From the NCBI GenBank assembly GCA_002368355.1, contig AP018281.1, positions 3,844,001 through 3,908,000 on the forward strand: a DNA stretch of 64,000 nt, read 5' to 3'. Position numbers and translations under genes: made by a program. Positions 21,112-41,291 of the stretch are shown here, one piece after another. Origin of the DNA: Chondrocystis sp. NIES-4102 (GTDB taxonomy: Bacteria > Cyanobacteriota > Cyanobacteriia > Cyanobacteriales > Xenococcaceae). Under the pieces are notes generated by a model. The model saw only the letters and a program-made list of their open reading frames with translations. It was not told where the DNA came from and did not search any database. How positions within the stretch are numbered: the stretch's first letter is position 1; every line of letters starts with the position of its first letter.

Positions 21112-21569
21112 CTATTCTTTCTGAATACTTCCGTCGGGCATAGTAGTATCTTCGAGCATGACTCCTTCAAAATAACGCATGAAGTCGAAGAATCTGGCAT
21201 CTTTGAGATTAGCTCCTCTAAAATTGATGAAATTAACGCTGGCTTCAAACAGATTGGCTGTGAACAATTTGGCGTTATTCAAGTTAGTCCTAGTCAAATT
21301 GGCATCTTCGAGAACAGCACATTTGAGCTTGGCATTAGTCAGATTAGCTCCACTCAGGTTAATACCTCTCAATCTAGCACCAACCAAATTAGCCCTCTCA
21401 AATTAGCCCTTTGGAAACGAGCGCGATTCAAATTGACTCCGATCAAGTCAGCCCCACTCAAATTGATTTCCATGAGAAATGTCTGCTCCAAGACAACTTC
21501 TCTCAAATCGACACCAGTGAAATTGCGATCGCCAGCAGCATATCTTCTGAGCAATTCCTCAGGAGTTAT
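21112..21569 (-). pseudogene. Antisense pentapeptide-repeat gene, frameshifted, overlapping the start of the giant ORF
   Basis: On the minus strand ITPEELLRRYAAGDRNF is followed by A-N/D-L-x-G-type pentapeptides in two frames (to 21369, then from 21387 down to 21112), joined if one base is added near 21398. The C-terminus TTMPDGSIQKE matches the ends of two other pentapeptide ORFs in the window. No ATG is present at the expected place. The same one-base change also repairs the plus-strand frame, so both readings share a single lesion. Confidence 0.45.
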
Positions 21570-24500: not shown

Positions 24501-27500
24501 GTCGCTTTGGGTGAAGAGTTAGAGTTTACTTTGATAGGTTCAGATCCTGATGCGGAAACAACTCTTACCTATTTCGTTGAAAATCTCCCAGAGGGAGCGA
24601 CTCTAAATTCCGAAACGGGAGTAGTAACCTGGAAACCCTCCCCAGGACAGGTAGGAGATTATGTAGTTACCTATCAAGTCAACGATGGGGAGGATGTAGC
24701 CCGTAAAAACGCTTTAATTCGCGTCGAAACCACTCCTACACCTCCTAAGGTCAATCTTGAATTTACCCCTAGTTTCCCCGCCATTCCAGGACAGAAAGTA
24801 TTTATTAATGCTTTGGCTGATAGCTTTACCGAGATTGAAGAAATTAAGGTAATGATCAATGGCAAAGAATTAACCTTAGATGAGCGCAATAGAGCAGTAT
24901 ATACTCCTAATACTCCAGGCAGAGTAGAAGTAGAAGTGACTGCTACCGATGCTGCGGGACGTACTGCTACTACTACGGAAATTTTGAAAGTAAGAGATCC
25001 TGAAGATAATGCCAAACCTGTAGTAGCGTTTGGTTTGGGTTTAAATGGTGAGGCTATTGCTAGTGCTACTGACATTAAGGCGACAGTAAGCGATCGCAAT
25101 TTGGATGAGTGGACTCTTTCGCTTCAGGGTAAAGGGGAAGGGGAAAAGGGTAAAGGGAAAGTAATTGCTACTGGTTATGGAGAGGTTAGTAATGATTCTG
25201 TCTTTGAGTTAGATCCTGCTCTGTATGCTAATGGTTTCTATACTTTAGAATTAACCGCTACGGATATTAAGGGGCGGACTTCCACCACTGAGATAATTGT
25301 CGAGGTTGAAGGGAATGATAAAACTGCCCGCTATCAAAGAAGTGACAGCGATTTAACTGTAGACTTTGGCGGTATTAATATTGACCTTATTCGTCGTTAT
25401 GACTCCTTGCAGCGTAACCAGTCTGGTAGCTCTCTTGATGCGCGTTCCCTTGCGCCTGCCCTAAAGGATACCGCTTCGCATAACGGCGGCGCGGGGTCGC
25501 ATCGCTTTGGCAATGGGTGGTCAAGTAGTTGGGACTTTGATTTAGAAACCGATGTCGAAATTCGCGGTAGTGGCAATGAAGGGATTAAACCCTTGGAAAC
25601 TGGTACGAGATTGTACTTGACTGCTCCCGATGGAGAAAGAGTTGGCTTTACCTTCCAACCCGTAGCCGAAGAGATTACGGGCTTGACTTACTATCGTCCC
25701 GCTTGGGTAGCAGATGAAGAAGTTGACTTTACTTTAGAATCTGCTGATGTACTGTTAAGTAAAGCAGGCGATCGCTTTTATGACCTTGAGACTGCGAAAC
25801 CATATAATTTAGAAGGCAGAAGTCAAGAGGCTTATACCCTGACTGCTAGTGATGGTACTCGTTATGAAGTAGATAGTGAAGGTAAATTACAGGAACAGAT
25901 TACTAGTAATGGTACTCGTCTGATTTACAGCGATAGCGGTATCTTGAATCCCGATACGGGTGAAATGGTGCGGTTTGAAACCGATGGTGATGGTCGTCTG
26001 ACGACTATTACTGCACCTAATGGAGAGAGCGTTATCTACACCTACGATGAATTGGGTAATTTGGTTGGGGCGCGTAATCTCGCCCTCGGTGAGTCGGTTC
26101 GTTACAGTTATGGCGATCACGGTTTAAATCTAATTGCTGGGGATACGGGTGAGGCGATTGAATACTTCGATACTCCTGTTATTAAACCGATTACGACCGA
26201 TTTGGGTACTGCTAGCAGCTTTACTGGAAAGACTGTTACAGGTAATGGCGACAATCTCTATAGCTTTGGCATTAGGGAGTCGGAAATTAAATCTACCAAT
26301 ACTGGTTTTGTCTTGTTGAGCATAGATTTAAGCGGTACTAACGAATTACCTACTATTGAAGGCTTAACTCCTCTGGGTACCGAAACAACCGCCGATAGTA
26401 GCTTTGCTATGTATGCAATAGACAAAGAAGGTTTAAATCTGCTTTCTGTTACTGGCGACTACGAACTACAACTTGGTATTGCTGGAGATGTCAACAACGA
26501 TAATGCCGTTGATGGAGTTGATAGTCAGTTAGTTGAAGCTGCTTTGGGTAAGACCGTTGGGGATACTGGTTATGATATGGCATTGGATGTGAATCGCGAT
26601 CGCATTATTGATGCGGAAGACTTACAAATCCTCGGTAGTAACTACGGTTTCCGTTACAACCAAGCTCCTGTAGTAACTGATGGTGAGGCTTTAACTCACG
26701 AAGATCTTAGCGTTGAAATTCCCTTAGCAGATCTGGCATCCGATCCTGAAGGCGAGCGCGTGTTCTTTAAGACCAAGGATGTAGAAAATGGTACTGTTTC
26801 CTTTAGTGCCGACGGACAGACTATTATCTTTAAACCCGATGTAGGTTATACGGGTACTGCATCCTTTAAGCTGTTTGCCGATGATGGTTATGCGGTTAGT
26901 AAGGCATCGATAGTGGAGATTAACGTCAGTGATGCACCTTTGACTAGTCTTGATTTTGTGGAACGCAATCTGGGGTTAGAGGTAGGCGAACAGTTTGAGT
27001 TACAGGTAATTGCGGACTTTGCCGACCAAGAGGATGTCATCGTTCCTGGGGATTATTTGACTTGGAGTAGTGAGAATCAAGGGGTTGCCAGTATTAGCGC
27101 TCGTGGTGTGGTGATTGGGGTGAGTAATGGTGATAGCATTATTAACGCTCAAAGAGATAAATTTACTGCTGTTACTGCTACAAATGTTGGCAAAAGTATC
27201 ACGCCTACTACTGAAGCAGAACTTTATGAAAATATAGCGGAAGAATATGGTTTAGAAGTCTTCCCCAAAGCAGCTAGTATTGCTCCAGGCGAAGTTATAC
27301 CTCTTGATGTTACTGCTGGACAAAGTGCCGATAGACCAGACTTGAGCAGTTATGAATCTGGTACTCGCTATTTTGTCAGCAACCCTGAAATTGCCGTAAT
27401 GAGTTCTAATGGAATGTTACTAGCCCTGAAAGAAGGGGTTGTTGATGTTACGGTTATTCACGGTGGTTCGGAATTTGTTATTCCTGTCAAGGTAGAAGAT

Positions 27501-30500
27501 CCACACTTAGGGAATACTGCTACTTTAGATGCAGCAGGGGGAATGCTGAAAAATGAAGATGACTATCAAGTGATGGTTGCTCCTGAAGCTTTAGCAGAAG
27601 AAACTACCGTTACCATCAATTCGCTAGCAGAATCAGAATTAGAATTACCCGTTCCTGATTATGTATCTTTGATTGGTGCATTTAGTTTAGATATTGGTTC
27701 ACAAGCAGCCAAAACTCCTCTGCAATTTGCACTGTCAGCACCAGAAAATTATTCAGAAAACGATCTTTTCCTTGTTCTCCGACAGGGACAGTTACCCAAC
27801 GCCGAAACAGGAGGTTGGAGTCCTAGTTGGCTAATTGAAGATTTTGCCACAGTAGAAGCCGATGGAATGCTACGCACTGGCAGTGAAACTAGCAAAATGC
27901 CTGGTATCTTTGCTGGAAATGGTGTTAATAACTTTATAGTGGTTTCGATGACCGTTCCAGACGAGCTACTCAATTCCTTTACTCCAGATACTCCTGAAAC
28001 AGCAGCAAATTTAAGTGCATCTTTACTAACAGAAAACAATGAAACAAGTTCTAACTCCTCAATTCTTAGTGCTGCTTTAGAAGCCGAAAATTCTAACTTT
28101 AATCCCACAGGTATTAATGATACATATACAGTTAACGAAGATGATTACTTAGTTGTTAGTGCTGCCGAAGGAGTTCTTGCTAATGATTCAGATCTTGAAG
28201 GCAATCGCTTAACTGCGAGTCTAAATTTACCACCAAGTCACGGTGAAATATCTTTGGGTGCAGATGGGGCATTTACATATATTCCAGAAGCTAACTTCAA
28301 CGGCAGCGATAGTTTTGAATACAAAGTAACAGATGGTTTGGGTGGAGAAAATATTGGTGTAGTAACAATAACGGTTAATCCCGTTAACGATCCTCCAGTA
28401 GCTTCCAATAACTTCTTCTTTGCCGAGATGAATCAAGTATTAGAAGCCGATTTAACACGAAATTTACTAGGCAATGATTTTGATGTTGATGGAGATCCTC
28501 TAACTATTACTCATCTGCAACCAGAACATGGTTCGGTAACAGTCAATTCCAATGGCACGTTTATTTACACACCTGATGATAATTATGTAGGTCCAGACAA
28601 ATTCAAATACAAAATTACTGATGGAGTTAGCGAAAGTACTGCTAACGTAAATTTACAAGTTCAAATTCCTCGCGCTCAGGATTCAATTTTGGCACCATTT
28701 TTGCAAGGCGGTTACTCAACGGCTATGTTTGCTTTGAGTACAGTTAGTGCGATCGCTTTCCCTGGTTCGGGATTAGGAATGATGATGACTGGTTTTAATG
28801 TGGCGATGGGTATAGCAGCTTCGACTGCTGTTCCTTTAATGGTTTTAGCTGATTTTCTAGCTCGTAGAAATCAGATACTTAATACCTATGCCATAGATGA
28901 AACTGGTAATTTTGTTACTACTCCCCTCAATATTGAATACAATACCGATAATCTTCCTTCAAAGATTGGTCGTCCTGTAAATCAGCCTGTTTCTCCCCAG
29001 ATTTCTCCTGCCAAAGTTGCTCCCAGTCTCGATAAAGTAGAAGTAACTTTTGATGAATCAACCTTAAATCAATATGGTCCTGTCATTTATGTTGAAGGAA
29101 GTAATATTCTGGCTAGCACTAATATTTCTAACTTAGGAGATAATTTTGCCGACCTCAAAATTGAAATTGCTGATGGCAAAGTAAATGAAGGTAAACCTAT
29201 AGTCCAGCAAGCAACAGTAATTCCCAGTCTCAGTCAAGAACTTGCTAATAACCGTCAAAGAGTAGCAATTCAAATTCCCAAAGATGTTTCCATTGGCGAT
29301 GCCTCAATCAAGATTATTCGTCCCAATGAAGTTTTGGATCTCCCTGGTACTTCAACAAAAACCATTGAAGTTCCCAGTTTGCCAATTCAATTCCCTAGAA
29401 CAGAATTAAACTATGAATTTACAGTTGCCAGAGATTCTGACGATGTAATTGTTACCAGTCGTGATAATGGTGCAATCGTTGCCAGAATTAAGCTTCCTGA
29501 AAATGGCAGTCCTGTGGCTGCTGCTCTCAATCCAGATTCTACTCGTTATTATGTACCCCTAAGAAATATAGGAGAAGTAGCAGTAGTAAGTACCCTGACT
29601 CTCAACCCCATTGATTTCGCTCCTGATACTCCAGAGGTCGATTCAATTAAACTGCCTACTGGTGCTGCACCAGAGCAAATTGCGATCGCTCCTAATGGAC
29701 AATATGCCTATGTCAGCGATATGGACAATCAGTCTATTTATATTCTGGATATTACACCAGGTTCGGAAGACTACAATCACTTAGTAGATACAATTGCTGT
29801 AGGTGGTGCATCTGGTTCTAGACTGCGTAAGGTAGCTATTAGTGCCGACGGGAAAGTTTTATTTGCCACTCAATCGACTAACTTTACCGCTTCTAATTCT
29901 CAAAGCAGGATTGTGGCAATTAACATCAATCCAGAGGATGCAGGAACAGATCAATATCACCAGGTTATCGGTACATTAGCAGATATTCCTGAAAAAGTTT
30001 TTGGTATTAGATCGGTTCCCAATACTAATCAGATGGGAGTCACCTTCCGTAGAACAAGAGAAAATCAAGGTGGATTTGCCTTCTTAAATTATCAATATAA
30101 TACACCTGGAGAACCAGCAAGTGGTATTCAGCTTTCATTAGGTAAAGTGGAATCTGTAGCTATGGGTAGCAACTTGGTGGGTGCTTGGGACCCCTATGAT
30201 ATAGTAGTCGATACTTTTGAATATGAAGACCCCAGTTATCCTACAGGTAAAAAAACTAAAACACTTGCTTTTGTTGGTGGTTTTAACGGTGGAGCATTAC
30301 CTAGTATTGCTTTTAATGGACCTAGAGAATTAAACGATGTAACTTCTGCCACAGTTTTAGTTTTGACCGTAGATGAAGCTCCTAATGGTAATTATACATT
30401 TAAAGAAAAAGCATCATTCCTAACCCCTAAATTAATGGGTCATATCACGGATTTAGAGGTTGTGGAGCGAGAAGTATTAACTGCTCCTGATGCAGGATTA

Positions 30501-33500
30501 CCACTTGTCAAAGACAAACAAAAAGAACTGATTGTTACTTATCCTGGTAAACAGCAAACAATTACTTTCGATCCAGGAGAAATTGCCAAGAAATTAGATG
30601 AGGCAGAATTAAACCCAGAGTTAAAAGAAAAACTCAAAAAGACACCGATCGATCTTGAAGAACCGAAGGTTAGGAAGCGTACTCGAAGACTGGAGGATCT
30701 AGCCGATGGTGCTAGCGGTCTAGAAACGATTATCGATGAAACTTTAGAAATAGCTAAGGAATATTGGGACAGAAGAGCCAAAGAACAGGCAGAAGAAGCC
30801 CTACAGGAGATAGAAGATAAAGTACCAGGTAGAGCTTGGGATATTGTCTTGCCTCTACCCAATCCTGTTAAACCTATTCCTTCTTTTGTAGATCTCAAAC
30901 CAATTGGCGATCGCATAATTAATAGTGATGATTTAATCGCAGAATTACAGCCAGTAGAAGAGACAGAAACCTTTATTCAACCAGGAGTATTAGATTTAAT
31001 TGAATGGGAGTATGAAGAATCACTAGATGAAGAACAGGAAGTACAAAAAATTGTTCTATTTATAAGTACCAGTCCTGATGGAGAAGGCTTGACTCCTGAA
31101 GATGGAGAGTTTGTAGATTGGGATAATGTTGATGAAAATTCTTCTATTTTCACTAAGAGAAATATTCTAGGTAAACAAGTAACTGACTTTAACCCCAATC
31201 GAGTTCTAACTGCTGAAGGAACTTTAATAGAAAATGGAATTATTTGGGAATCATTAGGTGGTCGAGACTTCAATAATTTTGAAGTAGAAGGCATGGATAA
31301 TGCTTTTCCTGTCGGAGATTACCTAAACCTAACTCCTGGTAGGTATTACTACAAGATATGGACTAAACAAGGAAATGGACAAATTATCGAACACGATCCA
31401 TCTTCTTTTGAGTGGTATCCTACAGTCGAGCGCAAAATTATTAAACCTGATGATGATACCGCACTACAACCCGCGCCACCTTTCCCTAGCATCACCGTCA
31501 TTACTCCTGATGCTTACAAAAACGATCCTAATTCCTTCATAAAAGCACATAATTTGGGCTTGAATATTGCCAACAAAATCGACCGTTCCACTGCCGAAGA
31601 TGGTTATGTGTTGCGTTACGAACCGTTGACTGGCGATTGGATTTCGGTAGATGGCGAGGAAATCGCACTTGAAGATCTAGACCGTAATAAACCTCTAGTT
31701 TTGATTACAGATTGGAGCGAAGATTCCCAAGACGACAAATACAACTCTGGTACAGCCGAAGCAGCAGCAGATAGTTTCTTTAGTTCCTTAATTCAACTCG
31801 ACCAAGAGTATCTCGGTGGTTCGATTGGCTTATCGGGTAATATTTACGATCCAAATGGAGATTTAATTTATAATCCAGGTGGTTTATTAAATTCACCTTT
31901 CCATTTTGTTAGCTTTGGTGCTGGTGCGGTAGTCAACACCGAAATTATTCAGCGCATCGGTGCTGCTTTCCCCAAACAGGATGAGAATAACAACGATACT
32001 CGGTTTGTAAATACCTTCCCCGATCTACAGATGACTACTATCGAGCCGAATCAGGGAGATGAGTTTGAGCCTGAAATAACCGTTTGGGATAACGTTACCT
32101 TTGCCGATAATTACTATCAAAATGCGACCGAACCATTTAGCGAAGTTTTAGATAAAGCAGATATTAACATTCCTTTGGGTGCAAATGACTTTAGCCTAAC
32201 CCGTGCTGGCTTTACTGGTAGTCCTTTGGAAAATGGAAATATTAGTAAGAACTCTAACATTAGAGCAGTAGCTTGGTACAAAGGTACGGCTAATATTAAC
32301 GAACACGAAACCTTTATTGACTATCCTATACTTCGCCGACTCGGAGACTTTAGCCAACCTGATTTTTCTGCTCCTGATACTGCGCCTTGGTATGTAGCAG
32401 AACACGAACTAGGAGGACAAATAATTGAAGATGAATTTAGAAATGGACAGTGGGAAGGTAACGGTACTGGTTGGTTCTATTCGATGCTGGGTAATGGTTA
32501 TTTCAAACGTCCCGAACCGATTGAAGGAAAGCGTTCTGTAGCCGAAGATAATACTGCATTAGATAAGCAAAGAGGTGATTTTGCCGTTCCTACCTTGTTT
32601 AACGGTAATTTTGATGTGATCGCTCAACAATTAGATACTCAGCCTATTCCTGGTTGGAGTTTGCATAGTAATGATGAGAATCAAAATTCAACCTTATTGC
32701 AAGGGGCTTTGAAAAAATGGGATGAGATTAGTTCTTTGGCAAATCATCGGACAAAATTAGGCTACAACCCTGCAAATCCAGACTATACACTTGAATTATC
32801 AGGAGGAGAAAGTATTGTTCACAATCGCTTTGTTGTTCCTGATTGGGGTACTCTACGTTTTGATTTGCATACCCCCTCTCTGTTAGGTGGCGATTTAGAT
32901 GTTTTTATCAAAGGTGATGCAGTAGGCTACGAGTCATTTAATGAACTTCAGAGCATTGATTTATCGCCAGCTACGGGAAGAGGCAGACAATATGAGAATG
33001 ACCTTTACAAAATCGGTTATGGAACATCTGGTTTTGAGACATTCCATATTAACTTACCTAGTTCTTTAAGAGGTAAAAGTGTAGAACTAAAATTCGAGCT
33101 TCAAGGGTTTAAAACTGTCTATTTAGATAACGTCTTTTTCCAAAGTGAGCACCTTAGATTTGGTAATCCTACTGAAGCAAGAAGTGCAGAGCCAATAGTT
33201 CCTGATGCTAATAATTTATTGCTTGAAAAGCCTCAATACTCCCTTTCTTACAACGAGACAGCTAAAACTCCAAACTGGGTGAGCTGGCAACTCAATAAAG
33301 CATGGTTAGGAAACACTAGGCGATACAATTATTTCTTGATCGATCCTATTTTGCCTAATGGATTAACCCGAATCAGAACTCAAGATTATGATAATAGTGG
33401 CTACGATAGAGGACACATGTTGCCTTCTAGCCAACGTAATAGAAATAAGAAAGACAATATTGCCACTTTCTTAATGACTAACATTTTGCCTCAAACGGTA

Positions 33501-36500
33501 GATAACAATCAGTTTTTCACTACGTTTCCATCTCCAAATCCTGACCTCAGATCTGCTTGGTACAATTTTGAAAAATACACAAAAGATTTGGCAAATGATG
33601 GTAGAGAACTTTATTTGGTTGCAGGTGGATACGATTTTAATTTCAATGTACAGCCACAAGTAATAAGTAACGCAGATCCAGCCCAAAGTACACGGAGAGG
33701 AGGGCTAACAACGCCATCTATCCTAGATAGTAGAGGAATCCAGATTCCTTCATGGACATGGAAAACAGCAGTTGTTCTCGACCGTCCTGGTCTCGGTATA
33801 GAAGATGTTTCGGCTACTACACCAACTCATGCAATTATTACACCCAATACACCAGAACCAACTTTAACAGAGTTTAATAATGGAGGTGTTCAGCATCCAC
33901 TTGATACTATAATCCCGCTTGATTCTCCTCGTTCCAATATTACTAGTCAAGCTCAGTGGAGAAATTGGGAAACATGGAGGGTCACAGTCGATCAATTAGA
34001 AGATTTATTGAGAACTACACCAGGTTTATCAACCTTCGACTTAATGCCCGAAGTACGTCAAAATATTCAAAATTCTATTGAGGCATCTTTAAGTCCAGTA
34101 GTTTCAGTACCAAACTTTCCACCAGAAGAAGATGATAGTGACTCTTCTGTAGAAGGAGAAGATAATGGTGATGAACCTCTTTCCTCTTTACTTCTTGGTA
34201 CAGAGAATCAACCCCTGACAGGTTTAATCTTCAACGGGGTGAGGTCCTTCCAGGAAAGTTCCATCGGGCAGAGTGGTGTCACAGAAGAAAGCACTTTCGT
34301 ACCAAGCACCTTCGTCTTTAGCTCCAGTCATATTAGCCCCAGTCAAATCAACTCCAGTCATGTTAGCCCCGCGAAGGTCGGCATTCCTGAGATCGGCTCG
34401 AATCAACTTGGCACCTTCAAAGATAGAACCACTCAAATCAGCATCACTGAAACAAACTTTGGTCAAGTTGGTAAGCCTAAAACAAGATCGAATAAGTTTA
34501 GTGCCACTGAAAGCACAAGCACGCATATCATTGGCACTGAAGTTAGTCCCACTAAGATCTCCTTCGGAAAAGTTGACTCCGTTGATAGCTTGTCCGACAG
34601 GATTGTTCTCTTCCCATCCAGTAGCCCTGCTCAAGTCAGCATTAGTGAGTTCAATTCCAAAGAACTCTTTATCCCCAGCAGCATAGCGAGCGAAGAATTC
34701 ATCAGCAGTAATTTTCATGATTTGACACCTCAAATAATTAATGTACTAAATAATACCGCAACCAACATCTGGTCAGATTTACTGCAAACCGAAACCCAAC
34801 TAGACATCGATTTCCAAATTACCGACCTACCCACAGGACAACTGGCAGAAGCAACTATCACTGGTTTCGATGACTCTGGAGTACCCAATGCAGGAACAAT
34901 CCTCATCGACCATGATGCCAATGGTGTCGGTTGGTTCATTGACTCTACTCCGCTTGAGAGTTCGGAGTTCGGAGTTCAGAATTCGGAAACTTATCTACTT
35001 GCTGCTGCCGATTCCGAAGCCAATGGTAAATACGATTTACTAACTGCCGTTCTTCACGAACTAGCTCACCTTTATGGTTTTATCGACGGTTATGCAGGCT
35101 ACAGCGATCGCCTAGAAACCAAAAACGGCACTACTAAATTCATTGGTGATGACTTCACCACCACTCTTAATGGGGAACATCTAGATAAAGAAGCTCATCC
35201 TCACGATTTGATGAATACTCATCTTGCTCCTGGAGTACGGAAGTTACCTTCGGAGTTGAATGTTCAGATACTACAGGCTATCCTTGCTGATGAAGACGGG
35301 GGGACTCGGAGACTAGGGGACGGGGAGAAACTAGATGCAGCTTTAACTTCAGATCCTCTCTTGGCGATCGCTAATGGTGACTTTAGCATCTCCGACACTA
35401 CTACCGATAGCTTTGCTTGGGATACTCGTGGGAAGAGCGGTATCGAATCTGGTCAGGCGATACTGACGGAAGACTCACCTTTCTTGAGCAATTTCACTCA
35501 AACCTTTACCGTACCTGAAGATGCCAAGACCATTCAGTTCAAGTTAATCGGCGCAGAATTAGGGGCGAGCGAACTGGCACCACCAGATGCCTTTGAAGTT
35601 GCTCTCCTCGATGCCAACACTAATCAACCCCTAACCACTACCTCCAATGGTTTAACCGAAACTGATTCCCTACTCAACATTCAAAACGATGGTACGGCAT
35701 ACTTCAGTAACAACGTCAGAATAAACGGTACGACATCAGGAGAGATGATTGATTTAGATAAATCCCGCACCATTACCATCGATATCTCCCATTTAACCCC
35801 AGGTCGTGATGCAACCCTCTACTTCGATCTTCTAGGCTTCGGTGCAGCAGATTCTCGCGTTGTAATTGATGACGTAATTCTTTCCGACCAAAACCTCTTA
35901 CCACCAGTAACTACAGATGATACCGCTACTACTACTCAAAGACAACCTGTAGTTATAGATATCCTCAATAACGATAGGGACGAAGACGGAACTCTTGCAG
36001 TCAATTCAGTCCAAATCCAAACCGAACCCCACTACGGTACAGTAACAGTCAACAACGACGGCACAGTATCCTATACAAGTGAAGATCGCACTATTGGAGA
36101 CGATACTTTTACATACGTAGTTCAGGATTCGGACGGGCAAATATCAGAACCTGCTACTGTAAATGTCACAGTTGAAAACGCCATTCCTGAAATTACTGAA
36201 ATACAAATTCCTAATACTATTACTGAAGGGGACACTACTACATTTACTGCGCTCGCATCCGACCCTGGAAACGATGAACTTACCTATAGTTGGAACTTCG
36301 GTGATGGAAAGACTGCTACTTCCTTAGACACTACTCATACCTATGTCCAGGACGGCGAATATATATTAACTGTTACCGTTGATGATGGCAAAGGTGGAAT
36401 CACAACTTCATCGCTTACTGTTACAGTTAATAATGTTGCTCCTATGATTGAGCGCATAGACAATAAAATTAGTAATGAAGGACAAGAAGTTCAATTTGAT

Positions 36501-39500
36501 TTTAGCTTTAAAGACCCTGGAGTACTCGATACCCATACTGTTACTTGGGACTTTGGAGATGGTAGTAAGATATTAGAAGTAAATAGTGATACTTTATCTA
36601 TAAGTCACATTTATACTAATAATGGCATTTATACCGCTACCATTACTGTTACTGATAGCAATGGAGCGATTGCTACCCAAGACATTACCGTTACAGTAGA
36701 AAATCTCGCTCCTATAATTGAATCAGTTACTGGCGACACTGAAATTAGTGAGGGCGATACCGCGAACTTTAAGGCTGTTGCGTCAGATCCTGGAAACGAT
36801 ACTTTAACTTATACTTGGGACTTTGGTGACGGGGAAACTGATACAGGTATGAATGTTTCTCACACATTTATTAGCAATGGAAACTATACAGTAACCCTAA
36901 CAGTACAAGACTCCGATGGAGCGAGTACTAGTCAAACATTGGATGTTACGGTAAATAATGTTGCCCCTGTAATCGAAAGTATTACGGCAGATTCAGAAAT
37001 TAATGAAGGAGATACTGCGAGCTTTAATGCGCTTACAAGAGATGCGGGTAATGATGAACTGACTCTAACTTGGGACTTTGCCGATGGTTCGGAACAATTA
37101 ACTGTTAATGAATCCGATTTACCTGTCAGCCATCAGTATGCAGATAACGGGAACTACACCGTCACCTTAACCGTTACCGATACTAGTGGGGATAATACCA
37201 GCAGCACCCATCAAATAACAGTTAATAATACTGCTCCTGTTATTACCAGTCTGACTGACGACTTGCTAATTAACGAAGGATCTCGGGTTAATCTAAGTGC
37301 TTTCGCCACTGATGCTGGAGATGATGAACTGACTTATGCTTGGGATTTCGGTGATGGTACGAATACCGTCATGGGTGAAAATGTTGAACACATCTTTGTT
37401 GATAATGGTCTTTATGAGGCGACTGTAACAGTTACCGATGATGATGGTGCATCTACTAGCTCTAGTTTGACTATTACCGTTAACAATGTCGCCCCCATAA
37501 TAGATCCTTGGTTAGATGAAACCGCAACGGAAGGGGATACTGTAGAATTCAATCTCAGCTTTAAAGATCCTGGTAGCTTAGATACTCATACTTTAACTTG
37601 GGACTTTGGCGACGGCAATAAACTATTGACTACCAATGGCGATGAAACTTCTGTTAGCCATATCTATACAGATAATGGTGTTTATACTGCTAGGGTTATT
37701 GTTACTGACAGTAACGGAGCGAGTTCTACTAATACCATGACGGTAACAGTTAATAACGCTGCCCCTGCGCTCGCATCTTTAACGGGAGATACTAATATTG
37801 ATGAGGGTAGTACTGCTAACTTCTCTATAACCGCAAAAGATCCAGGAGACGATACCTTAACTTATACTTGGGACTTCGGTGATGGAGAAACTGCCACAGG
37901 AAAAGATGTTTCTCATATCTTTAGCCAAAATGGAACTTATACCGTTACTGCTACCGTAACTGATGATGATGGTGCATCTACTTCTTCTACAATGGAGGTG
38001 GCAGTTAATAATCTTGCTCCAGTAATTGAATCAATTACAGGTGATACCGAGATCCAGGAAGGAGATACCGCGAGCTTTAATGCACTCGCAATAGATTCAG
38101 GAAAAGATACTCTAACCTATGCTTGGAACTTTGGAGACGGTAGTGAAACCGTAACTGGTAATGAAGTTACTCATGTTTTTGCAGATAATGGTAACTATAC
38201 TGTTGAATTAACTGTTACTGACAGTGATGGATCTTCTACTTCTCAGACTTTAGATGTCAAAGTGAATAATGTTGCACCTATCATTACTGAAGCTAATGGC
38301 AATACTCAAATCAACGAAGGTGATACAGCGAACTTTAATGCACTTGCAATAGATCCAGGAAAAGATACTCTAACTTACACTTGGACGTTAGAAGATGGCA
38401 CTGAATTAAGGGATCAAAATGTTAATTACACCTTTGCTGAAGATGGAGAATACAATGTCAACCTTACCGTCAGTGACTCCGATGGGGCGAGTACCAGTCA
38501 AACTTTGGTTATTACCGTATCTAACGTCGCTCCTATTATTAGCGAACTTGAAGACCAAACCAGTGATGAAGGTCAAACCGTTGAGTTTGAAGGAAACTTC
38601 CAAGATCCTGGTATTTTGGATACTCATACTGTTGAATGGCATTTTGGTGATGGAAATAATGCGGAAAACACTTTAAATCCCACTCATGTTTATACTGATA
38701 ATGGCGAATATGATGCCAGCTTAACTATTACCGATGACGAAGGAGCAGGTACTACAATTGGTTTTAAAGTCATAGTTAACAATGTTGCTCCCACAATTAC
38801 TGAAATTGTCGGTAATAATTCGGTAGATGAAGGTAGTCTAACCACTTTCTTGGCAGTTACAACAGATCCTGGATCTGACGAACTCATCTACACTTGGAAT
38901 TTTGGTGATGGTAGTGAACTTTTAGTTTCCCCAGATCCTTTAACTCCCATTCCCCACATCTATCAAGACAACGGTAACTATACTGTTGATGTAATGGTAA
39001 CAGATGATGATGGTGCTACAGATAGTCAGACCTTTGAAATTACCGTAAATAATGTTAATCCCACCATTGAATCAGTTACAGGGGATACAGAGATTAATGA
39101 GGGAGACACTGCCACATTTGAAGCTTTTGCCAAAGATCCTGGAGACGATACTCTAAGCTATACTTGGAACTTCGGAGATAATAGCGAATCTGTAACGGGT
39201 GAAAATAGTTCTCACCTCTATCAAGATAACGGGGAGTACACTGTAACCCTGACAGTACAAGATGATGATGGCGGAGTTACAATTCAAACTTTAACTGTCA
39301 CAGTTAATAATGTTGCTCCCATTATCGAATACTTAACTGGGGATACTCAAATTCAGGAAGGAAGCACTGCTAACTTTAACGCTGGTGTTATAGATCCAGG
39401 TAATGACGAACTTACTTATATATGGAACTTTGGTGACGGTTCTGAATCTGTGACTGATAGTATAGGTATAATATCCCATACTTATACTAATAATGGGGAA

Positions 39501-41291
39501 TATACAGTCAATTTCACTGTAAAAGATGATGATGGCGGACAGACATCTAGTTCTATTGTCGTCACTGTGGATAATGTTGCACCTACAATTACAGATATAG
39601 CTTATAGTCCCGTTCATGAAGGAAAATCAACTAAATTTACTGCCACTGCCAAAGATCCTGGAAATGATACTCTAACCTACACCTGGAACTTTGGTGACGG
39701 TTCTGAAACTGTTGAGGGAGCTATAGTTAATCATTTATATACTGATGATGGATTCTATACTGCTACCTTGACGGTAAGAGACTCCGATGGAGGTGTTACT
39801 ACTTCTAATTTTATGATTGCCGTCAGGCAGGTATTCAACCTGAAAGCAGAAGGCAAAGTTAGGATTAATGGTAGCAGCGATTTAGAACGAGAGATTTTAA
39901 ATCCCAACGATGATACCAGAATTTATGCTGGTGCTGGATTTACTATTAACGGTAACCAAACTTTACCAGTACAAAGAGACCAAGCTGGTAATCCAATTCT
40001 TCAACGAAGCCACGGCGGACAGCTTGAGGTCACCTCAAGAGAACGTGCGCTTCAAAATAATAAACCTGTTTTAATTGAACGGGCTATTACTGTAGGGCCT
40101 AATTATACTGAAAGTAATGCTAACGCTATTAGAGATAAATATGTGGGTGTGATTCCTCCTCAAGTAATTGAAAAGTTAGTTGTTAATGTTCCCTCACATC
40201 AATCACTAATTGAGCAAGAATTAATTACCTCTAAAGTTAATTTTAATCCTCAGTCCTATAGATTAAATAACGCTAATCAATGGGCAAGTGTGTTCCCAAA
40301 TTCTGGTACAACTGATAATCCAACTGTTGTACGTGTAAAGCTTGGTAGTTTGAATATTCCTACTGGAGTTTCTTTAAATAATACTGTAATTATTGTAGAG
40401 CGAGGAGATATTAATTTTAATGGTAATGGACACAATTTAGATTCTGTTGTCTTAATTGCGAGCAAGGGTTCGATTAATCTTGCTGCTATTTATTCTAATA
40501 ATTCAGCTATTTTTGCTGCTAATGCTATTAATATTAATCGTCATGCCAAATTTAGTGGCAATACTACAATAGCTACAGGTGATAATAATAGTAATCTAAA
40601 TTTTGATGGCGCAACTTCTACTTTGGATGCCTATAGCCATCTGAAAGTTATTTCTCAAGGTAATATTATTTATAATTCTTCTAATGCTACTTATGGAGAA
40701 TTCACCGCAGCTAAAAACTTTACTGCCAATGGTCGCACTGATTTAATAGGTTCGATTCAAGCTAAGGGAGATATTATTATTAATGGTGGTATTAGTATGG
40801 CTAGTACATTTAATAGCGGTATTTTAACTTATTATAATCATACTGGTAACATTATTTATCATTTCCTTAAAAAGGAAAATAATGGTTTTAATAGTAATTT
40901 TTATACTTCCAGTGCATTAGAAAAGGACGTTGTGATTAGTAGTTTTAATAATTATCAATATCAAGGAGAGTCTTTTATTTCCTCTGGTTCAATCATTGAA
41001 GGCGGTGCTGATGTTTATCGTTTCTTTAACACTCAAACAGCGACTCATTTTTACACTACTAATGAAACTGAGCGAGACTTTATTTTAAGTTCCTTATCTC
41101 ACTTTTCTTATGAAGGAATCGCTTTTACTGCCTATTCTACTCGACTCGAAAATTCTCTTCCTGTTTATCGCTTTTATGACAGTAATAAGGGTATTCATTT
41201 CTTCACAAATGATGAAGCCTCTATGATTTCTTTGCGTCGTAATGCTCAGTATAATTATGAAGGTATTGCTTACTATGTTATCCCTGTGTAA
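21411..41291 (+). CDS. Giant mosaic secreted-type protein (6626 codons), probably 5'-truncated
   Basis: 19.9 kb without a stop. In order (residues, approximate): 1-50 pentapeptide-antisense linker; 245-1105 nine He_PIG-type Ig repeats; 1306-1595 RHS/YD-like; 1689-1747 dockerin-like (AGDVNNDNAVDGVD, DVNRDRIIDAEDL); 1842-2030 BIG2-like; 2233-2424 cadherin-like; 2427-2484 hydrophobic; 2664-3030 YVTN-like propeller; 3057-3137 charged helix; 3360-3567 hydrolase-like, with Gly in S-F-G-A-G where a Ser nucleophile is expected; 3723-3920 beta-sandwich; 3937-4163 non-specific nuclease with D-R-G-H4002-M and metal Asn4024; 4272-4436 second antisense linker; 4457-4627 zincin-like H4549-E-L-A-H-L-Y-G-F-I-D4559; 4840-4922 cadherin-like; 4924-6143 fourteen PKD-like repeats; 6477-6626 DUF5648-like. 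The only start is a TTG without a ribosome-binding site; the first in-frame ATG is codon 288. Confidence 0.75.
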   Translation: METSAIQIDSDQVSPTQIDFHEKCLLQDNFSQIDTSEIAIASSISSEQFLRSYNSTSFDLVNNLTANLNADETEIINPSSVEYNPETNTATLYFNAFNPNKYELIVDDNLTNLDGITLEAPYKVDFTAVSDFSQLVDLEFTNTRSDRKNKTISFDVSLTNQTDYNLSLPLNLVLQPGNNSETAHLTKYTSISDGGAYFIDLSDSLPDGILKPGQSITEETVTIYNPDDLRFEFEPGVYTLPTNNNAPVFTSEPVTTATAGESYVYNVAASDPDGSVIGYLLYDAPEGMSVTQDGQITWNPTTDSPSSAKVSLHVYDSRGGRAIQEFTIAVAGGNNAPVFTAIPSSIKGVEGKPIKLNINAADADGDNLQYWVDNLPPGGNFDRNTNVFSWIPGFEQAGSYENVRFIASDGNEEVSMTTTFLVAQGNQKPTLLPVSDRTFKEGDNIRIQLQASDTENDKLTFSSNLLPGGSFLDPNTGIFEWTPGFFQAGNYEIPFTVSDGKLSTTETFKLQILNVNAAPKFDDLSNWAVAEGQTINFRAFAFDGDNPGFVPQERTADGQLTLIEGSDPTVTYAVEGLPEGATFDADTAIFNWKPSYDKAGEYEVTFTATDNGDGLTPKTATGTVSIKVGDTNRPPTITAISNPIVQRGSIVDLKIYTTDPDGNVLTIKGTGAGGFELPSFVTLADNGDGTANLNIAPGDGNRGDHPVTIIATDELGVTTEYSFIITVDAFNERPLLQHIGNKVAVVGEPIEFTVYVADLDEDNLTFSATGLPDGASLTPSNTYGRATFSWTPTVDDLGSYPITIQVEDSGNGDNSQKLSQEQEFNIVVRNSNTAPVFETGGESTRQLSVMEGETLSFTFIGTDADGDDLTYSANKLPKGAKLDPVTGELTWQPSYRSAGIYEGIEVIVSDGHSSSSQNIKITVTNSNFAPVLTSIPLQSTRENTELTFNLKGNDIDGDALLYSAVSQLPKGAKLDARTGEFKWKPSYGQAGNYTLEFAITDSNGSQDTKQVEIVVANVNRAPSIEVKPTIVALGEELEFTLIGSDPDAETTLTYFVENLPEGATLNSETGVVTWKPSPGQVGDYVVTYQVNDGEDVARKNALIRVETTPTPPKVNLEFTPSFPAIPGQKVFINALADSFTEIEEIKVMINGKELTLDERNRAVYTPNTPGRVEVEVTATDAAGRTATTTEILKVRDPEDNAKPVVAFGLGLNGEAIASATDIKATVSDRNLDEWTLSLQGKGEGEKGKGKVIATGYGEVSNDSVFELDPALYANGFYTLELTATDIKGRTSTTEIIVEVEGNDKTARYQRSDSDLTVDFGGINIDLIRRYDSLQRNQSGSSLDARSLAPALKDTASHNGGAGSHRFGNGWSSSWDFDLETDVEIRGSGNEGIKPLETGTRLYLTAPDGERVGFTFQPVAEEITGLTYYRPAWVADEEVDFTLESADVLLSKAGDRFYDLETAKPYNLEGRSQEAYTLTASDGTRYEVDSEGKLQEQITSNGTRLIYSDSGILNPDTGEMVRFETDGDGRLTTITAPNGESVIYTYDELGNLVGARNLALGESVRYSYGDHGLNLIAGDTGEAIEYFDTPVIKPITTDLGTASSFTGKTVTGNGDNLYSFGIRESEIKSTNTGFVLLSIDLSGTNELPTIEGLTPLGTETTADSSFAMYAIDKEGLNLLSVTGDYELQLGIAGDVNNDNAVDGVDSQLVEAALGKTVGDTGYDMALDVNRDRIIDAEDLQILGSNYGFRYNQAPVVTDGEALTHEDLSVEIPLADLASDPEGERVFFKTKDVENGTVSFSADGQTIIFKPDVGYTGTASFKLFADDGYAVSKASIVEINVSDAPLTSLDFVERNLGLEVGEQFELQVIADFADQEDVIVPGDYLTWSSENQGVASISARGVVIGVSNGDSIINAQRDKFTAVTATNVGKSITPTTEAELYENIAEEYGLEVFPKAASIAPGEVIPLDVTAGQSADRPDLSSYESGTRYFVSNPEIAVMSSNGMLLALKEGVVDVTVIHGGSEFVIPVKVEDPHLGNTATLDAAGGMLKNEDDYQVMVAPEALAEETTVTINSLAESELELPVPDYVSLIGAFSLDIGSQAAKTPLQFALSAPENYSENDLFLVLRQGQLPNAETGGWSPSWLIEDFATVEADGMLRTGSETSKMPGIFAGNGVNNFIVVSMTVPDELLNSFTPDTPETAANLSASLLTENNETSSNSSILSAALEAENSNFNPTGINDTYTVNEDDYLVVSAAEGVLANDSDLEGNRLTASLNLPPSHGEISLGADGAFTYIPEANFNGSDSFEYKVTDGLGGENIGVVTITVNPVNDPPVASNNFFFAEMNQVLEADLTRNLLGNDFDVDGDPLTITHLQPEHGSVTVNSNGTFIYTPDDNYVGPDKFKYKITDGVSESTANVNLQVQIPRAQDSILAPFLQGGYSTAMFALSTVSAIAFPGSGLGMMMTGFNVAMGIAASTAVPLMVLADFLARRNQILNTYAIDETGNFVTTPLNIEYNTDNLPSKIGRPVNQPVSPQISPAKVAPSLDKVEVTFDESTLNQYGPVIYVEGSNILASTNISNLGDNFADLKIEIADGKVNEGKPIVQQATVIPSLSQELANNRQRVAIQIPKDVSIGDASIKIIRPNEVLDLPGTSTKTIEVPSLPIQFPRTELNYEFTVARDSDDVIVTSRDNGAIVARIKLPENGSPVAAALNPDSTRYYVPLRNIGEVAVVSTLTLNPIDFAPDTPEVDSIKLPTGAAPEQIAIAPNGQYAYVSDMDNQSIYILDITPGSEDYNHLVDTIAVGGASGSRLRKVAISADGKVLFATQSTNFTASNSQSRIVAININPEDAGTDQYHQVIGTLADIPEKVFGIRSVPNTNQMGVTFRRTRENQGGFAFLNYQYNTPGEPASGIQLSLGKVESVAMGSNLVGAWDPYDIVVDTFEYEDPSYPTGKKTKTLAFVGGFNGGALPSIAFNGPRELNDVTSATVLVLTVDEAPNGNYTFKEKASFLTPKLMGHITDLEVVEREVLTAPDAGLPLVKDKQKELIVTYPGKQQTITFDPGEIAKKLDEAELNPELKEKLKKTPIDLEEPKVRKRTRRLEDLADGASGLETIIDETLEIAKEYWDRRAKEQAEEALQEIEDKVPGRAWDIVLPLPNPVKPIPSFVDLKPIGDRIINSDDLIAELQPVEETETFIQPGVLDLIEWEYEESLDEEQEVQKIVLFISTSPDGEGLTPEDGEFVDWDNVDENSSIFTKRNILGKQVTDFNPNRVLTAEGTLIENGIIWESLGGRDFNNFEVEGMDNAFPVGDYLNLTPGRYYYKIWTKQGNGQIIEHDPSSFEWYPTVERKIIKPDDDTALQPAPPFPSITVITPDAYKNDPNSFIKAHNLGLNIANKIDRSTAEDGYVLRYEPLTGDWISVDGEEIALEDLDRNKPLVLITDWSEDSQDDKYNSGTAEAAADSFFSSLIQLDQEYLGGSIGLSGNIYDPNGDLIYNPGGLLNSPFHFVSFGAGAVVNTEIIQRIGAAFPKQDENNNDTRFVNTFPDLQMTTIEPNQGDEFEPEITVWDNVTFADNYYQNATEPFSEVLDKADINIPLGANDFSLTRAGFTGSPLENGNISKNSNIRAVAWYKGTANINEHETFIDYPILRRLGDFSQPDFSAPDTAPWYVAEHELGGQIIEDEFRNGQWEGNGTGWFYSMLGNGYFKRPEPIEGKRSVAEDNTALDKQRGDFAVPTLFNGNFDVIAQQLDTQPIPGWSLHSNDENQNSTLLQGALKKWDEISSLANHRTKLGYNPANPDYTLELSGGESIVHNRFVVPDWGTLRFDLHTPSLLGGDLDVFIKGDAVGYESFNELQSIDLSPATGRGRQYENDLYKIGYGTSGFETFHINLPSSLRGKSVELKFELQGFKTVYLDNVFFQSEHLRFGNPTEARSAEPIVPDANNLLLEKPQYSLSYNETAKTPNWVSWQLNKAWLGNTRRYNYFLIDPILPNGLTRIRTQDYDNSGYDRGHMLPSSQRNRNKKDNIATFLMTNILPQTVDNNQFFTTFPSPNPDLRSAWYNFEKYTKDLANDGRELYLVAGGYDFNFNVQPQVISNADPAQSTRRGGLTTPSILDSRGIQIPSWTWKTAVVLDRPGLGIEDVSATTPTHAIITPNTPEPTLTEFNNGGVQHPLDTIIPLDSPRSNITSQAQWRNWETWRVTVDQLEDLLRTTPGLSTFDLMPEVRQNIQNSIEASLSPVVSVPNFPPEEDDSDSSVEGEDNGDEPLSSLLLGTENQPLTGLIFNGVRSFQESSIGQSGVTEESTFVPSTFVFSSSHISPSQINSSHVSPAKVGIPEIGSNQLGTFKDRTTQISITETNFGQVGKPKTRSNKFSATESTSTHIIGTEVSPTKISFGKVDSVDSLSDRIVLFPSSSPAQVSISEFNSKELFIPSSIASEEFISSNFHDLTPQIINVLNNTATNIWSDLLQTETQLDIDFQITDLPTGQLAEATITGFDDSGVPNAGTILIDHDANGVGWFIDSTPLESSEFGVQNSETYLLAAADSEANGKYDLLTAVLHELAHLYGFIDGYAGYSDRLETKNGTTKFIGDDFTTTLNGEHLDKEAHPHDLMNTHLAPGVRKLPSELNVQILQAILADEDGGTRRLGDGEKLDAALTSDPLLAIANGDFSISDTTTDSFAWDTRGKSGIESGQAILTEDSPFLSNFTQTFTVPEDAKTIQFKLIGAELGASELAPPDAFEVALLDANTNQPLTTTSNGLTETDSLLNIQNDGTAYFSNNVRINGTTSGEMIDLDKSRTITIDISHLTPGRDATLYFDLLGFGAADSRVVIDDVILSDQNLLPPVTTDDTATTTQRQPVVIDILNNDRDEDGTLAVNSVQIQTEPHYGTVTVNNDGTVSYTSEDRTIGDDTFTYVVQDSDGQISEPATVNVTVENAIPEITEIQIPNTITEGDTTTFTALASDPGNDELTYSWNFGDGKTATSLDTTHTYVQDGEYILTVTVDDGKGGITTSSLTVTVNNVAPMIERIDNKISNEGQEVQFDFSFKDPGVLDTHTVTWDFGDGSKILEVNSDTLSISHIYTNNGIYTATITVTDSNGAIATQDITVTVENLAPIIESVTGDTEISEGDTANFKAVASDPGNDTLTYTWDFGDGETDTGMNVSHTFISNGNYTVTLTVQDSDGASTSQTLDVTVNNVAPVIESITADSEINEGDTASFNALTRDAGNDELTLTWDFADGSEQLTVNESDLPVSHQYADNGNYTVTLTVTDTSGDNTSSTHQITVNNTAPVITSLTDDLLINEGSRVNLSAFATDAGDDELTYAWDFGDGTNTVMGENVEHIFVDNGLYEATVTVTDDDGASTSSSLTITVNNVAPIIDPWLDETATEGDTVEFNLSFKDPGSLDTHTLTWDFGDGNKLLTTNGDETSVSHIYTDNGVYTARVIVTDSNGASSTNTMTVTVNNAAPALASLTGDTNIDEGSTANFSITAKDPGDDTLTYTWDFGDGETATGKDVSHIFSQNGTYTVTATVTDDDGASTSSTMEVAVNNLAPVIESITGDTEIQEGDTASFNALAIDSGKDTLTYAWNFGDGSETVTGNEVTHVFADNGNYTVELTVTDSDGSSTSQTLDVKVNNVAPIITEANGNTQINEGDTANFNALAIDPGKDTLTYTWTLEDGTELRDQNVNYTFAEDGEYNVNLTVSDSDGASTSQTLVITVSNVAPIISELEDQTSDEGQTVEFEGNFQDPGILDTHTVEWHFGDGNNAENTLNPTHVYTDNGEYDASLTITDDEGAGTTIGFKVIVNNVAPTITEIVGNNSVDEGSLTTFLAVTTDPGSDELIYTWNFGDGSELLVSPDPLTPIPHIYQDNGNYTVDVMVTDDDGATDSQTFEITVNNVNPTIESVTGDTEINEGDTATFEAFAKDPGDDTLSYTWNFGDNSESVTGENSSHLYQDNGEYTVTLTVQDDDGGVTIQTLTVTVNNVAPIIEYLTGDTQIQEGSTANFNAGVIDPGNDELTYIWNFGDGSESVTDSIGIISHTYTNNGEYTVNFTVKDDDGGQTSSSIVVTVDNVAPTITDIAYSPVHEGKSTKFTATAKDPGNDTLTYTWNFGDGSETVEGAIVNHLYTDDGFYTATLTVRDSDGGVTTSNFMIAVRQVFNLKAEGKVRINGSSDLEREILNPNDDTRIYAGAGFTINGNQTLPVQRDQAGNPILQRSHGGQLEVTSRERALQNNKPVLIERAITVGPNYTESNANAIRDKYVGVIPPQVIEKLVVNVPSHQSLIEQELITSKVNFNPQSYRLNNANQWASVFPNSGTTDNPTVVRVKLGSLNIPTGVSLNNTVIIVERGDINFNGNGHNLDSVVLIASKGSINLAAIYSNNSAIFAANAININRHAKFSGNTTIATGDNNSNLNFDGATSTLDAYSHLKVISQGNIIYNSSNATYGEFTAAKNFTANGRTDLIGSIQAKGDIIINGGISMASTFNSGILTYYNHTGNIIYHFLKKENNGFNSNFYTSSALEKDVVISSFNNYQYQGESFISSGSIIEGGADVYRFFNTQTATHFYTTNETERDFILSSLSHFSYEGIAFTAYSTRLENSLPVYRFYDSNKGIHFFTNDEASMISLRRNAQYNYEGIAYYVIPV
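25437..25505. repeat. GC-rich repeat inserted in frame in the giant gene
   Basis: A GC-rich stretch with CCCTAAAGGAT at 25459-25469 interrupts the RHS-like region between RYDSLQRNQSGSS and HRFGNGWSSSW. The same 11-mer occurs twice in intergenic DNA at 4701 and 4815. The insertion keeps the reading frame. Confidence 0.5.
34224..34718 (-). CDS. Intact pentapeptide-repeat ORF, antisense within the giant gene
   Basis: 164 codons from ATG at 34718: MKITADEFFARYAAGDKEFFG, then repeats such as NADLS, ADLSG, ADLRNADLRGANMTG, ending CDTTLPDGTFLEG. This is the normal layout of a cyanobacterial pentapeptide-repeat protein, which folds as a right-handed quadrilateral beta-helix. GAGGTG lies seven bases before the ATG, a good ribosome-binding site. 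Minus and plus codons are in exact register, so each five-residue repeat becomes a five-residue (S/P)-x-(Q/H/K)-(I/V)-(S/G) unit of the giant protein. Openness on both strands is partly expected from composition. The start, the ribosome-binding site and the canonical ends are what argue for a real or formerly real gene. Confidence 0.4.
   Translation of the reverse strand: MKITADEFFARYAAGDKEFFGIELTNADLSRATGWEENNPVGQAINGVNFSEGDLSGTNFSANDMRACAFSGTKLIRSCFRLTNLTKVCFSDADLSGSIFEGAKLIRADLRNADLRGANMTGVDLTGANMTGAKDEGAWYESAFFCDTTLPDGTFLEGPHPVED
40006..40053. repeat. Nested palindromic repeat inside the giant coding sequence
   Basis: Arms CTTGAGGT (40023-40030) and ACCTCAAG (40032-40039) form a near-perfect hairpin, enclosed by GAAGC (40006-40010) and GCTTC (40049-40053). 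The core shares CTTGAGGTC-x-CC followed by GAACGTG with the repeat upstream of petF. It is translated as part of R-S-H-G-G-Q-L-E-V-T-S-R-E-R-A. Confidence 0.6.

What the first reader, a model, noticed from the sequence alone, without database searches (positions are those of the whole stretch)
34224..34718. Intact pentapeptide-repeat ORF lies antisense, codon-in-register, inside a 19.9-kb ORF
Seen: both strands are open across about 165 codons, with minus codons exactly opposite plus codons. The minus strand has ATG, GAGGTG seven bases before it, the KITADEFFARYAAGD head and the TTLPDG tail of ordinary pentapeptide proteins. The plus strand is continuous with a nuclease domain before and a zincin-like domain after. 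The 15-base period makes both products five-residue repeats. Inference: a pentapeptide gene was captured in reverse and became a linker of the giant protein, or the region encodes two proteins.
Basis: partly seen in the sequence, partly recalled or inferred. Interest (0 to 1): 0.82.

Follow-up and report, generated by a model that had tools for sequence, protein, structure and literature searches.

The report
Gene nested backwards inside giant gene
In several groups of cyanobacteria one stretch of about 500 DNA letters appears to encode two proteins at once, a compact repeat protein on one strand and a loose linker of a giant nuclease-bearing protein on the other, and the repeat protein may be the antidote to that nuclease.

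Summary
The 164-aa pentapeptide-repeat (PPR) gene (34224-34718, minus) lies codon-opposite-codon inside the plus frame joining a nuclease (PF01223) to a zincin-like domain. A reversed PPR opposite the zincin start recurs in 12 unnamed cyanobacterial families, with the nuclease also detected in 7, and in 10 of 10 plasmid loci examined.

Both strands look selected. Control PPR genes carry about 4 stops per 100 codons in the opposite in-register frame; 27 embedded ones carry 4 in 4578, and stop-making Leu codons drop from 21-31% to 0.5%. Substitutions favour PPR third positions. So the PPR is conserved by residue, the giant frame only as open. AlphaFold2: beta-helix for the PPR, disorder for the linker.

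A PPR gene adjoins 18 of 20 large-protein nucleases, against 1 of 20 stand-alone ones within the stretch. PPR divergence follows the nuclease (partial Mantel 0.43) more than the zincin (0.12). Best reading: an immunity-type gene nested in reverse inside its toxin gene. Expression and inhibition are untested.

The parts
34224..34718 (-). Pentapeptide-repeat gene, 164 aa, nested antisense and in codon register inside the giant ORF
   Evidence: AlphaFold2 mean pLDDT 85.8 (first ~40 residues lower, block means 51-75) with a bridge every five residues; PDB matches by sequence and fold
34726..34731 (-). GAGGTG, Shine-Dalgarno-like, 7 bases before the ATG
   Evidence: such motifs precede 18 of 26 embedded starts vs 169 of 1555 ATGs on the reverse-complement strand of the same loci
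21411..41291 (+). Giant ORF, 6626 codons from TTG; its start lies inside the linker of an older broken unit
33219..34034 (+). DNA/RNA non-specific endonuclease domain (PF01223)
   Evidence: 5.6e-35
34224..34718 (+). Linker of the giant protein: five-residue-period reading of the PPR gene's opposite strand, predicted disordered
   Evidence: stop depletion
34719..35280 (+). Zincin-like domain with HELAH (35055-35069); 'zincin' is recalled from the HExxH motif
   Evidence: weak NF038122 metalloprotease match below its cut-off; beside the PPR start in 25 other PPR genes and 10 plasmid loci
17845..21588 (+). Older, broken nuclease-linker unit with its own reversed PPR remnant (about 21115-21572, minus), interrupted by an IS605 OrfB/TnpB-type ORF at 19075-20454 and a frame change near 21400

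Best explanation
The 500-bp segment is a true sense/antisense overlapping gene pair. On the minus strand is a stand-alone PPR gene, the usual, mostly convergent neighbour of nuclease domains carried by large cyanobacterial proteins. On the plus strand the giant gene, instead of stopping after its nuclease domain, reads through the PPR gene in exact codon register into a zincin-like module, so the PPR gene's reverse complement serves as a flexible linker. Shown by sequence: both frames open, conserved layout, stop depletion in only the relevant frame, protein-type substitution on the PPR strand, start signals, predicted beta-helix. Inferred: both frames are translated; the PPR protein is the immunity protein of the nuclease, made in the producer's cytoplasm and blocking the nuclease, perhaps by DNA mimicry, so the gene is an antidote nested backwards in its toxin gene.
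For: Layout: 26 PPR genes (window included) sit opposite a zincin start within 250 bp, from 11 unnamed families plus Cyanothece BG0011; L048 adds a twelfth. In 14 of these 26 the nuclease is also found and no opposite stop occurs (7 families); in all 14, nuclease, PPR-opposite frame and zincin share one phase. Plasmids: 10 of 10 examined, of 19 with a match (two repeat earlier loci). Plus strand kept open: embedded 4 stops/4578 codons vs 135/3066 and 331/8418 in controls; the other two antisense frames are not depleted (2.18 and 10.75 per 100 vs 3.10/9.30 and 2.41/6.50); TTA+CTA 3/561 Leu vs 125/409 and 297/1386 (Fisher below 1e-42). Minus strand selected as protein: window vs L041 differences at PPR positions 1/2/3 are 22/18/66, rates NN 0.13, NS 0.48, SN 0.15. 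SD-like motifs 18/26 vs 10.9% background. PPR fold pLDDT 85.8. Nuclease link: PPR beside 18 of 20 large-protein nucleases vs 1 of 20 stand-alone ones (p=6e-8), in the same direction in two (L112, L113); tandem PPR arrays resemble polyimmunity loci. Mantel PPR~nuclease 0.45; 0.43 given zincin, p=0.0002 (22 loci).
Against: No expression data on either strand and no inhibition data. The closest PPR relatives of P0001 (L041-L044) show no nuclease hit in their 12-20 kb loci, so this subfamily also lives without one. Two of 20 large-protein nucleases lack a neighbouring PPR (L119, followed by a DDE transposase; L123). Residue constraint on the plus reading is not detectable beyond controls. PPR~zincin distance is also correlated before correction (0.19, p=0.014), and co-divergence may reflect exchange as a linked block rather than binding. 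Loci are related and several come from one genome, so the p-values overstate independence. P0001 is only moderately acidic (14 K+R, 25 D+E). SD-like motifs are also found at 6 of 13 and 11 of 29 control PPR starts, so they mark PPR genes generally. In many genomes the giant is broken while the PPR remains, and the window's own giant has a broken upstream part.
Confidence: 0.65

Rival explanations
1. Two-gene rival: the giant ORF is really a nuclease gene and a separate zincin gene with a convergent PPR gene between; the plus frame is open only because PPR repeats happen to read open on the other strand.
For: In several loci the plus frame is broken upstream while the PPR is intact (L048, L049, L057, L059, L060); in L060 the open frame opposite the PPR is not continuous with the zincin frame (25 stops in 200 codons upstream); L030 has one plus stop in the linker. 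Aliterella L042 is free-standing yet has no opposite in-register stop.
Against: Control PPR genes are not open on the other strand: about 4 stops per 100 codons; 1 of 32 (L042) and 1 of 14 (a 22-codon fragment) have none, against 24 of 27 embedded. Depletion is confined to the frame shared with nuclease and zincin.
Confidence: 0.07
2. The PPR partner is not an immunity protein but serves the giant protein otherwise (chaperone, regulator, or antisense regulation of the giant's mRNA).
For: The functions of cyanobacterial PPRs are almost completely unknown (abstract passage of PMC8145042); a PPR in Pantoea vgrG islands is predicted to be a secreted effector, not an antidote (passage of PMC3942780). 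The nearest relatives of P0001 live without a nuclease.
Against: Association is with the nuclease, mostly convergent but twice in the same direction, and nearly absent beside stand-alone nucleases; co-divergence is stronger with the nuclease than with the zincin. An RNA-only role would not need a conserved protein.
Confidence: 0.25
3. The plus linker is a selected domain in its own right and the PPR reading on the minus strand is a by-product of its QI(S) repeats.
For: A QI pair always reads [N/D/Y]L on the other strand, so synonymous resampling of the plus protein still scores as PPR-like (mean 23.8, maximum 34.1 of 1000; observed 37.6).
Against: Substitutions protect minus, not plus, residues; zero minus stops against 6.0 expected; head and tail match free-standing PPR genes; SD-like motifs.
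Confidence: 0.03

Closest known systems
Pentapeptide-repeat proteins (PF00805; HetL, NP275/NP276, Qnr, MfpA, AlbG)
   Same: Repeat pattern and predicted five-residue beta-helix
   Different: P0001 misses the NCBIfam cut-offs for HetL, Qnr and MfpA. I know of none encoded inside another gene (recalled). Gyrase protection is not suggested here.
Polymorphic toxin-immunity systems, Tox-NucA with Imm36, Imm-SUKH or Imm-NTF2 (Zhang 2012, PMC3482391; passages read)
   Same: NucA-type nuclease at the end of a long multidomain protein with a small neighbouring gene; tandem neighbours resemble homogeneous polyimmunity loci
   Different: 'Pentapeptide' does not occur in the held text (first 300,000 of 357,715 characters) and the Tox-NucA row lists no cyanobacteria. 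Here the partner lies on the opposite strand and, in embedded cases, inside the toxin ORF.
Long antisense overlapping genes of enterobacteria, such as pop/ompA (PMC7103648, abstract start) and those discussed in PMC7457138 (passages)
   Same: A gene wholly embedded on the antisense strand of another gene
   Different: A passage calls individual prokaryotic overlapping genes typically young compared with their hosts, though it adds that many embedded ORFs are conserved beyond the genus; here the embedded gene belongs to a long-recognised family with a predicted fold and recurs in 12 families
set1AB antisense within the pic gene (recalled; no call)
   Same: Small genes reversed inside a large secreted-protein gene
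   Different: No antidote relation, and restricted distribution, as recalled

Membership tests
Pentapeptide-repeat protein superfamily | At least eight contiguous A(D/N)LXX-type repeats | tested here: met
   PF00805 (an 8-copy model) 8.8e-24, three stretches
Pentapeptide-repeat protein superfamily | Right-handed quadrilateral beta-helix | tested here: met
   AF2 pLDDT 85.8 with a strand bridge every five residues; Foldseek list led by designed solenoids, NP275-NP276, HetL and MfpA, though TM-scores are modest, best 0.59 by query length
Qnr / MfpA / HetL subfamilies | Score above the NCBIfam curated cut-off | tested here: not met
   59.9 bits vs 260 for HetL; 38.4 vs 240 for Qnr; 32.5 vs 360 for MfpA
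Polymorphic toxin immunity protein | Gene adjacent to the toxin gene | tested here: met
   18 of 20 and 10 of 10 earlier loci, with gaps up to about 700 bp
Polymorphic toxin immunity protein | Cognate toxin is the C-terminal domain of a long exported protein | tested here: inconclusive
   C-terminal nuclease in L145, L146, L148; in the window the nuclease is internal; export was not tested
Polymorphic toxin immunity protein | Neutralises the toxin | not testable with these tools
   Needs a bench assay
Known Tox-NucA immunity families | Member of Imm36, SUKH or NTF2 | tested here: not met
   Only pentapeptide-type and weak unrelated models matched in Pfam and NCBIfam
Antisense overlapping gene pair | Selection on both reading frames | tested here: met
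   on the plus strand the constraint seen is only absence of stops
Antisense overlapping gene pair | Both strands transcribed and translated | not testable with these tools

The most novel reading that the evidence does not exclude
Cyanobacterial giant toxins carry their own antidotes written backwards inside them: the antidote gene's complement is also the linker that lets the toxin chain continue, so neither gene can easily be lost or recombined away without the other. The antidote is a DNA-mimicking pentapeptide-repeat protein, giving a function to part of a large cyanobacterial protein class that has almost none. Where one frame holds two nuclease units, each carries its own nested antidote (G019: L111 and L012, both in an 8564-codon frame).
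Probability: 0.5. Interest if true: 0.88.

Novelty: new variant of a known kind. Interest (0 to 1): 0.82.

Why it matters
How many long antisense overlapping genes in bacteria are functional is an open argument (PMC7457138, passages). This family offers two frames with strong, separable selection signatures in 12 families, one with a predicted fold. It also gives a concrete, testable function for some cyanobacterial PPR proteins. It may expose an annotation blind spot: of 9 plasmid loci with gene tables, 8 list the giant and no PPR, and the ninth lists the PPR and no giant across that stretch although its frame is open; PLSDB's tables are incomplete, so the original records should be checked.

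Tried and rejected
A recent one-off insertion of a PPR gene into the giant was rejected: the linker and its reversed PPR are shared by homologues in many families. Chance antisense openness of repeats was rejected by control PPR genes and codon resampling. Plus-strand residue conservation was looked for and not found beyond controls. Family comparisons did not place P0001 in any named PPR subfamily. A promoter scan gave no minus-strand site upstream of the PPR start and no terminator; it covers only sigma-70-like motifs. Literature: the listings showed no paper on a PPR gene as nuclease immunity or nested in a toxin gene; this covers only the open library held here, and I read passages of seven papers (PMC3482391, PMC11481896, PMC3942780, PMC7159879, PMC12419801, PMC8145042, PMC7457138), no whole text.

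Rows dropped and biases. One search found 128 PPR-like ORFs; one search kept 74 with an RY..G-type head, because the rest included wrong-frame decoys and headless fragments (this also dropped L019, an embedded gene with zero stops) and set one more (L025, second PPR, zero stops) aside. One control row (WIN, 22 codons) is a fragment; the 32 'other' controls include PPRs lying further from, or in the same direction as, a nuclease (such as L112, L113, L121) and L042. L048 and L111 were added to the embedded class by hand. Loci were fetched with a query that included the linker, which favours open plus frames, and L041 with the PPR itself. The subset numbered L047 and above (zincin-only query, plus L111) gives 17 genes, 3 stops in 2953 codons, and the plasmid set 10 genes, 0 in 1836 codons. 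In nine of those ten the PPR starts with ATG; in L153 the script found none. Of the 30 loci, seven (L061, L062, L064-L067, L074) show no PPR, L058, L068 and L072 show decayed or partial ones, and L053 is cut short. The 20 large-protein nucleases (open frames of 505-8564 codons, several from one genome, one with a stop inside) were chosen by me from the list, and the 20 stand-alone ones from its short frames, so the choice was not random. The output (99 pairs) was cut; only the pairs shown were used.

Full report
What is there. On the minus strand, 34718 to 34224 is a complete PPR gene: ATG, 164 codons, TAA, with GAGGTG seven bases before the start and a Pfam Pentapeptide match of 8.8e-24. On the plus strand the same bases are codons 4272-4436 of a 6626-codon ORF, between an Endonuclease_NS domain (5.6e-35) and a zincin-like domain with HELAH. 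The two codon registers coincide.

Not a one-off. Searches of 148 genomes of the order (99 matched some part of the query) and 388 of the class with the zincin part alone (23 matched) brought homologues of the flanking domains. Their linkers look alike on the plus strand (SPTQIS-like five-residue repeats). On the minus strand in register most read as intact PPR proteins with a common head (M..T.EELLxRYAAGERDFxG) and often an LPDG-like tail. Of the 30 loci kept, seven have no PPR and three have decayed or partial ones. PPR genes opposite a zincin start come from unnamed families f1, f15, f31, f33, f36, f43, f45, f48, f56-f59; a nuclease in the same phase with no intervening stop is shown for 14 loci in seven of these (f1, f31, f33, f36, f45, f48, f59). 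Plasmid records found through the zincin alone gave nuclease, reversed PPR and zincin in 10 of 10 examined (the best-ranked 10 of 19): Stanieria, Calothrix (3), Aulosira, Anabaena, Gloeothece (2) and Nostoc (2). Two repeat earlier loci (L149=L011, L158=L047).

Selection on the giant's strand. Control PPR genes carry 4.40 (14 genes next to nucleases) and 3.93 (32 others) stops per 100 codons in the opposite in-register frame. The 27 embedded ones carry 0.09, and 24 of 27 have none. The other two opposite frames are not depleted. The route is visible in codon choice: Leu TTA+CTA, which read as stops on the other strand, are 3 of 561 against 125 of 409 and 297 of 1386; Ser TCA is 1 of 343 against 10 of 212 and 34 of 630. 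About 150 plus stops would be expected over the embedded set and 4 are seen. The simplest reading is that ribosomes travel through the reverse side of the PPR gene in exactly the frame that joins nuclease and zincin.

Selection on the PPR strand. Between relatives, differences concentrate at PPR third positions, which are first positions of the giant. Window/L041 shows 22/18/66 at positions 1/2/3 and L010/L111 21/16/55; the pair L055/L069 is weaker, 45/25/51. Changes silent for the PPR but not the giant (NS) run at 0.48, 0.32 and 0.30 per site in these three, against 0.13, 0.08 and 0.16 for changes altering both and 0.15, 0.09 and 0.23 for changes silent only for the giant. NN/SN is about 0.7-0.9 in the embedded pairs shown and 0.7 or more in most control pairs shown, so no residue-level constraint on the linker is detectable. 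SD-like motifs precede 18 of 26 embedded starts, 6 of 13 and 11 of 29 control starts, and 169 of 1555 background ATGs (binomial p=3e-12 against background, ignoring relatedness), although those bases also encode the start of the zincin module. AlphaFold2 predicts a beta-helix for P0001 (mean pLDDT 85.8, lower over the first 40 residues; designed and natural PPR structures lead the Foldseek list, with modest TM-scores) and no structure for the linker (38.2, two-row alignment, so weak).

Why the gene is there. Large proteins that carry this nuclease domain usually have a PPR gene next door even without read-through: 10 of 10 (opposite strand) and 18 of 20 (16 on the opposite strand, two of them, L110 and L111, inside giant frames; two, L112 and L113, in the same direction). 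Stand-alone nucleases do not: 0 of 7 and 1 of 20, that one about 950 bp away. Several have two or three PPR genes in a row (L107, L109, L114, L117). Across 22 embedded loci PPR distances follow nuclease distances (Mantel 0.45; 0.43 given zincin, p=0.0002); they follow zincin distances weakly (0.19, p=0.014; 0.12 given nuclease, p=0.08). This is the pattern of a toxin-immunity pair. [quoted passage not shown] The nuclease-bearing proteins L145 and L146 have a DUF4114 domain near the start of the frame and the nuclease at the end, a layout that recalls polymorphic toxins.

Origin (inference). The unembedded nuclease-PPR pair looks like the commoner state. The embedded state would arise when the giant frame continues through the PPR gene into another module. 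Embedded PPRs are not one clade by identity: L041 (opposite a zincin remnant) and L042 (free-standing) are 82% identical, and L013 is 64% identical to a PPR of G001 outside any giant. L042, with no opposite stop although free-standing, may be an escapee from an embedded ancestor.

Against. There are no expression data. P0001's nearest relatives L041-L044 have no nuclease hit nearby. Two large-protein nucleases lack the PPR. The window's giant ORF starts in the wreck of an older unit, and in some genomes the giant is broken while the PPR remains (for example L048, L049, L050, L057, L059, L060). The last point fits an independently useful PPR gene but also warns that many giants are decaying.

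Verdict. The overlap itself I hold at about 0.92; the nuclease-immunity role at about 0.6; DNA mimicry as its mode at about 0.4.

Noticed in passing
17845-21588: An older nuclease-linker-PPR unit of the same giant gene lies upstream, interrupted by an IS605 OrfB/TnpB-type ORF (19075-20454; Pfam HTH_OrfB_IS605 6.7e-14 and Cas12f1-like TNB) and a frame change near 21400 that disturbs both strands at once.
   Followed up: partly
L068 (own genome, G000:C1 about 2938946-2940374): A second, decaying copy of the PPR-zincin segment elsewhere in the same genome, with stops on both strands.
   Followed up: partly
L111 and L012 (G019:C83): One 8564-codon frame holds two nuclease matches, each followed by its own reversed PPR gene.
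   Followed up: partly
L149-L157: Eight plasmid giants are listed without the PPR gene; in Nostoc TCL26-01 (L157) the PPR is listed and the open giant frame is not. PLSDB gene tables are incomplete, so this needs checking in the original records.
   Followed up: partly
L025/L063: Two tandem reversed PPR genes beside a broken zincin segment; both have no in-register stop on the opposite strand.
   Followed up: no
L041: An IS200-transposase-like ORF (Y1_Tnp 0.00079, below cut-off) lies next to a remnant of the giant in Cyanothece BG0011, with the PPR intact.
   Followed up: partly
L119: One nuclease without a neighbouring PPR is followed by a DDE transposase ORF (DDE_3 2.1e-20); the PPR may have been displaced.
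   Followed up: partly
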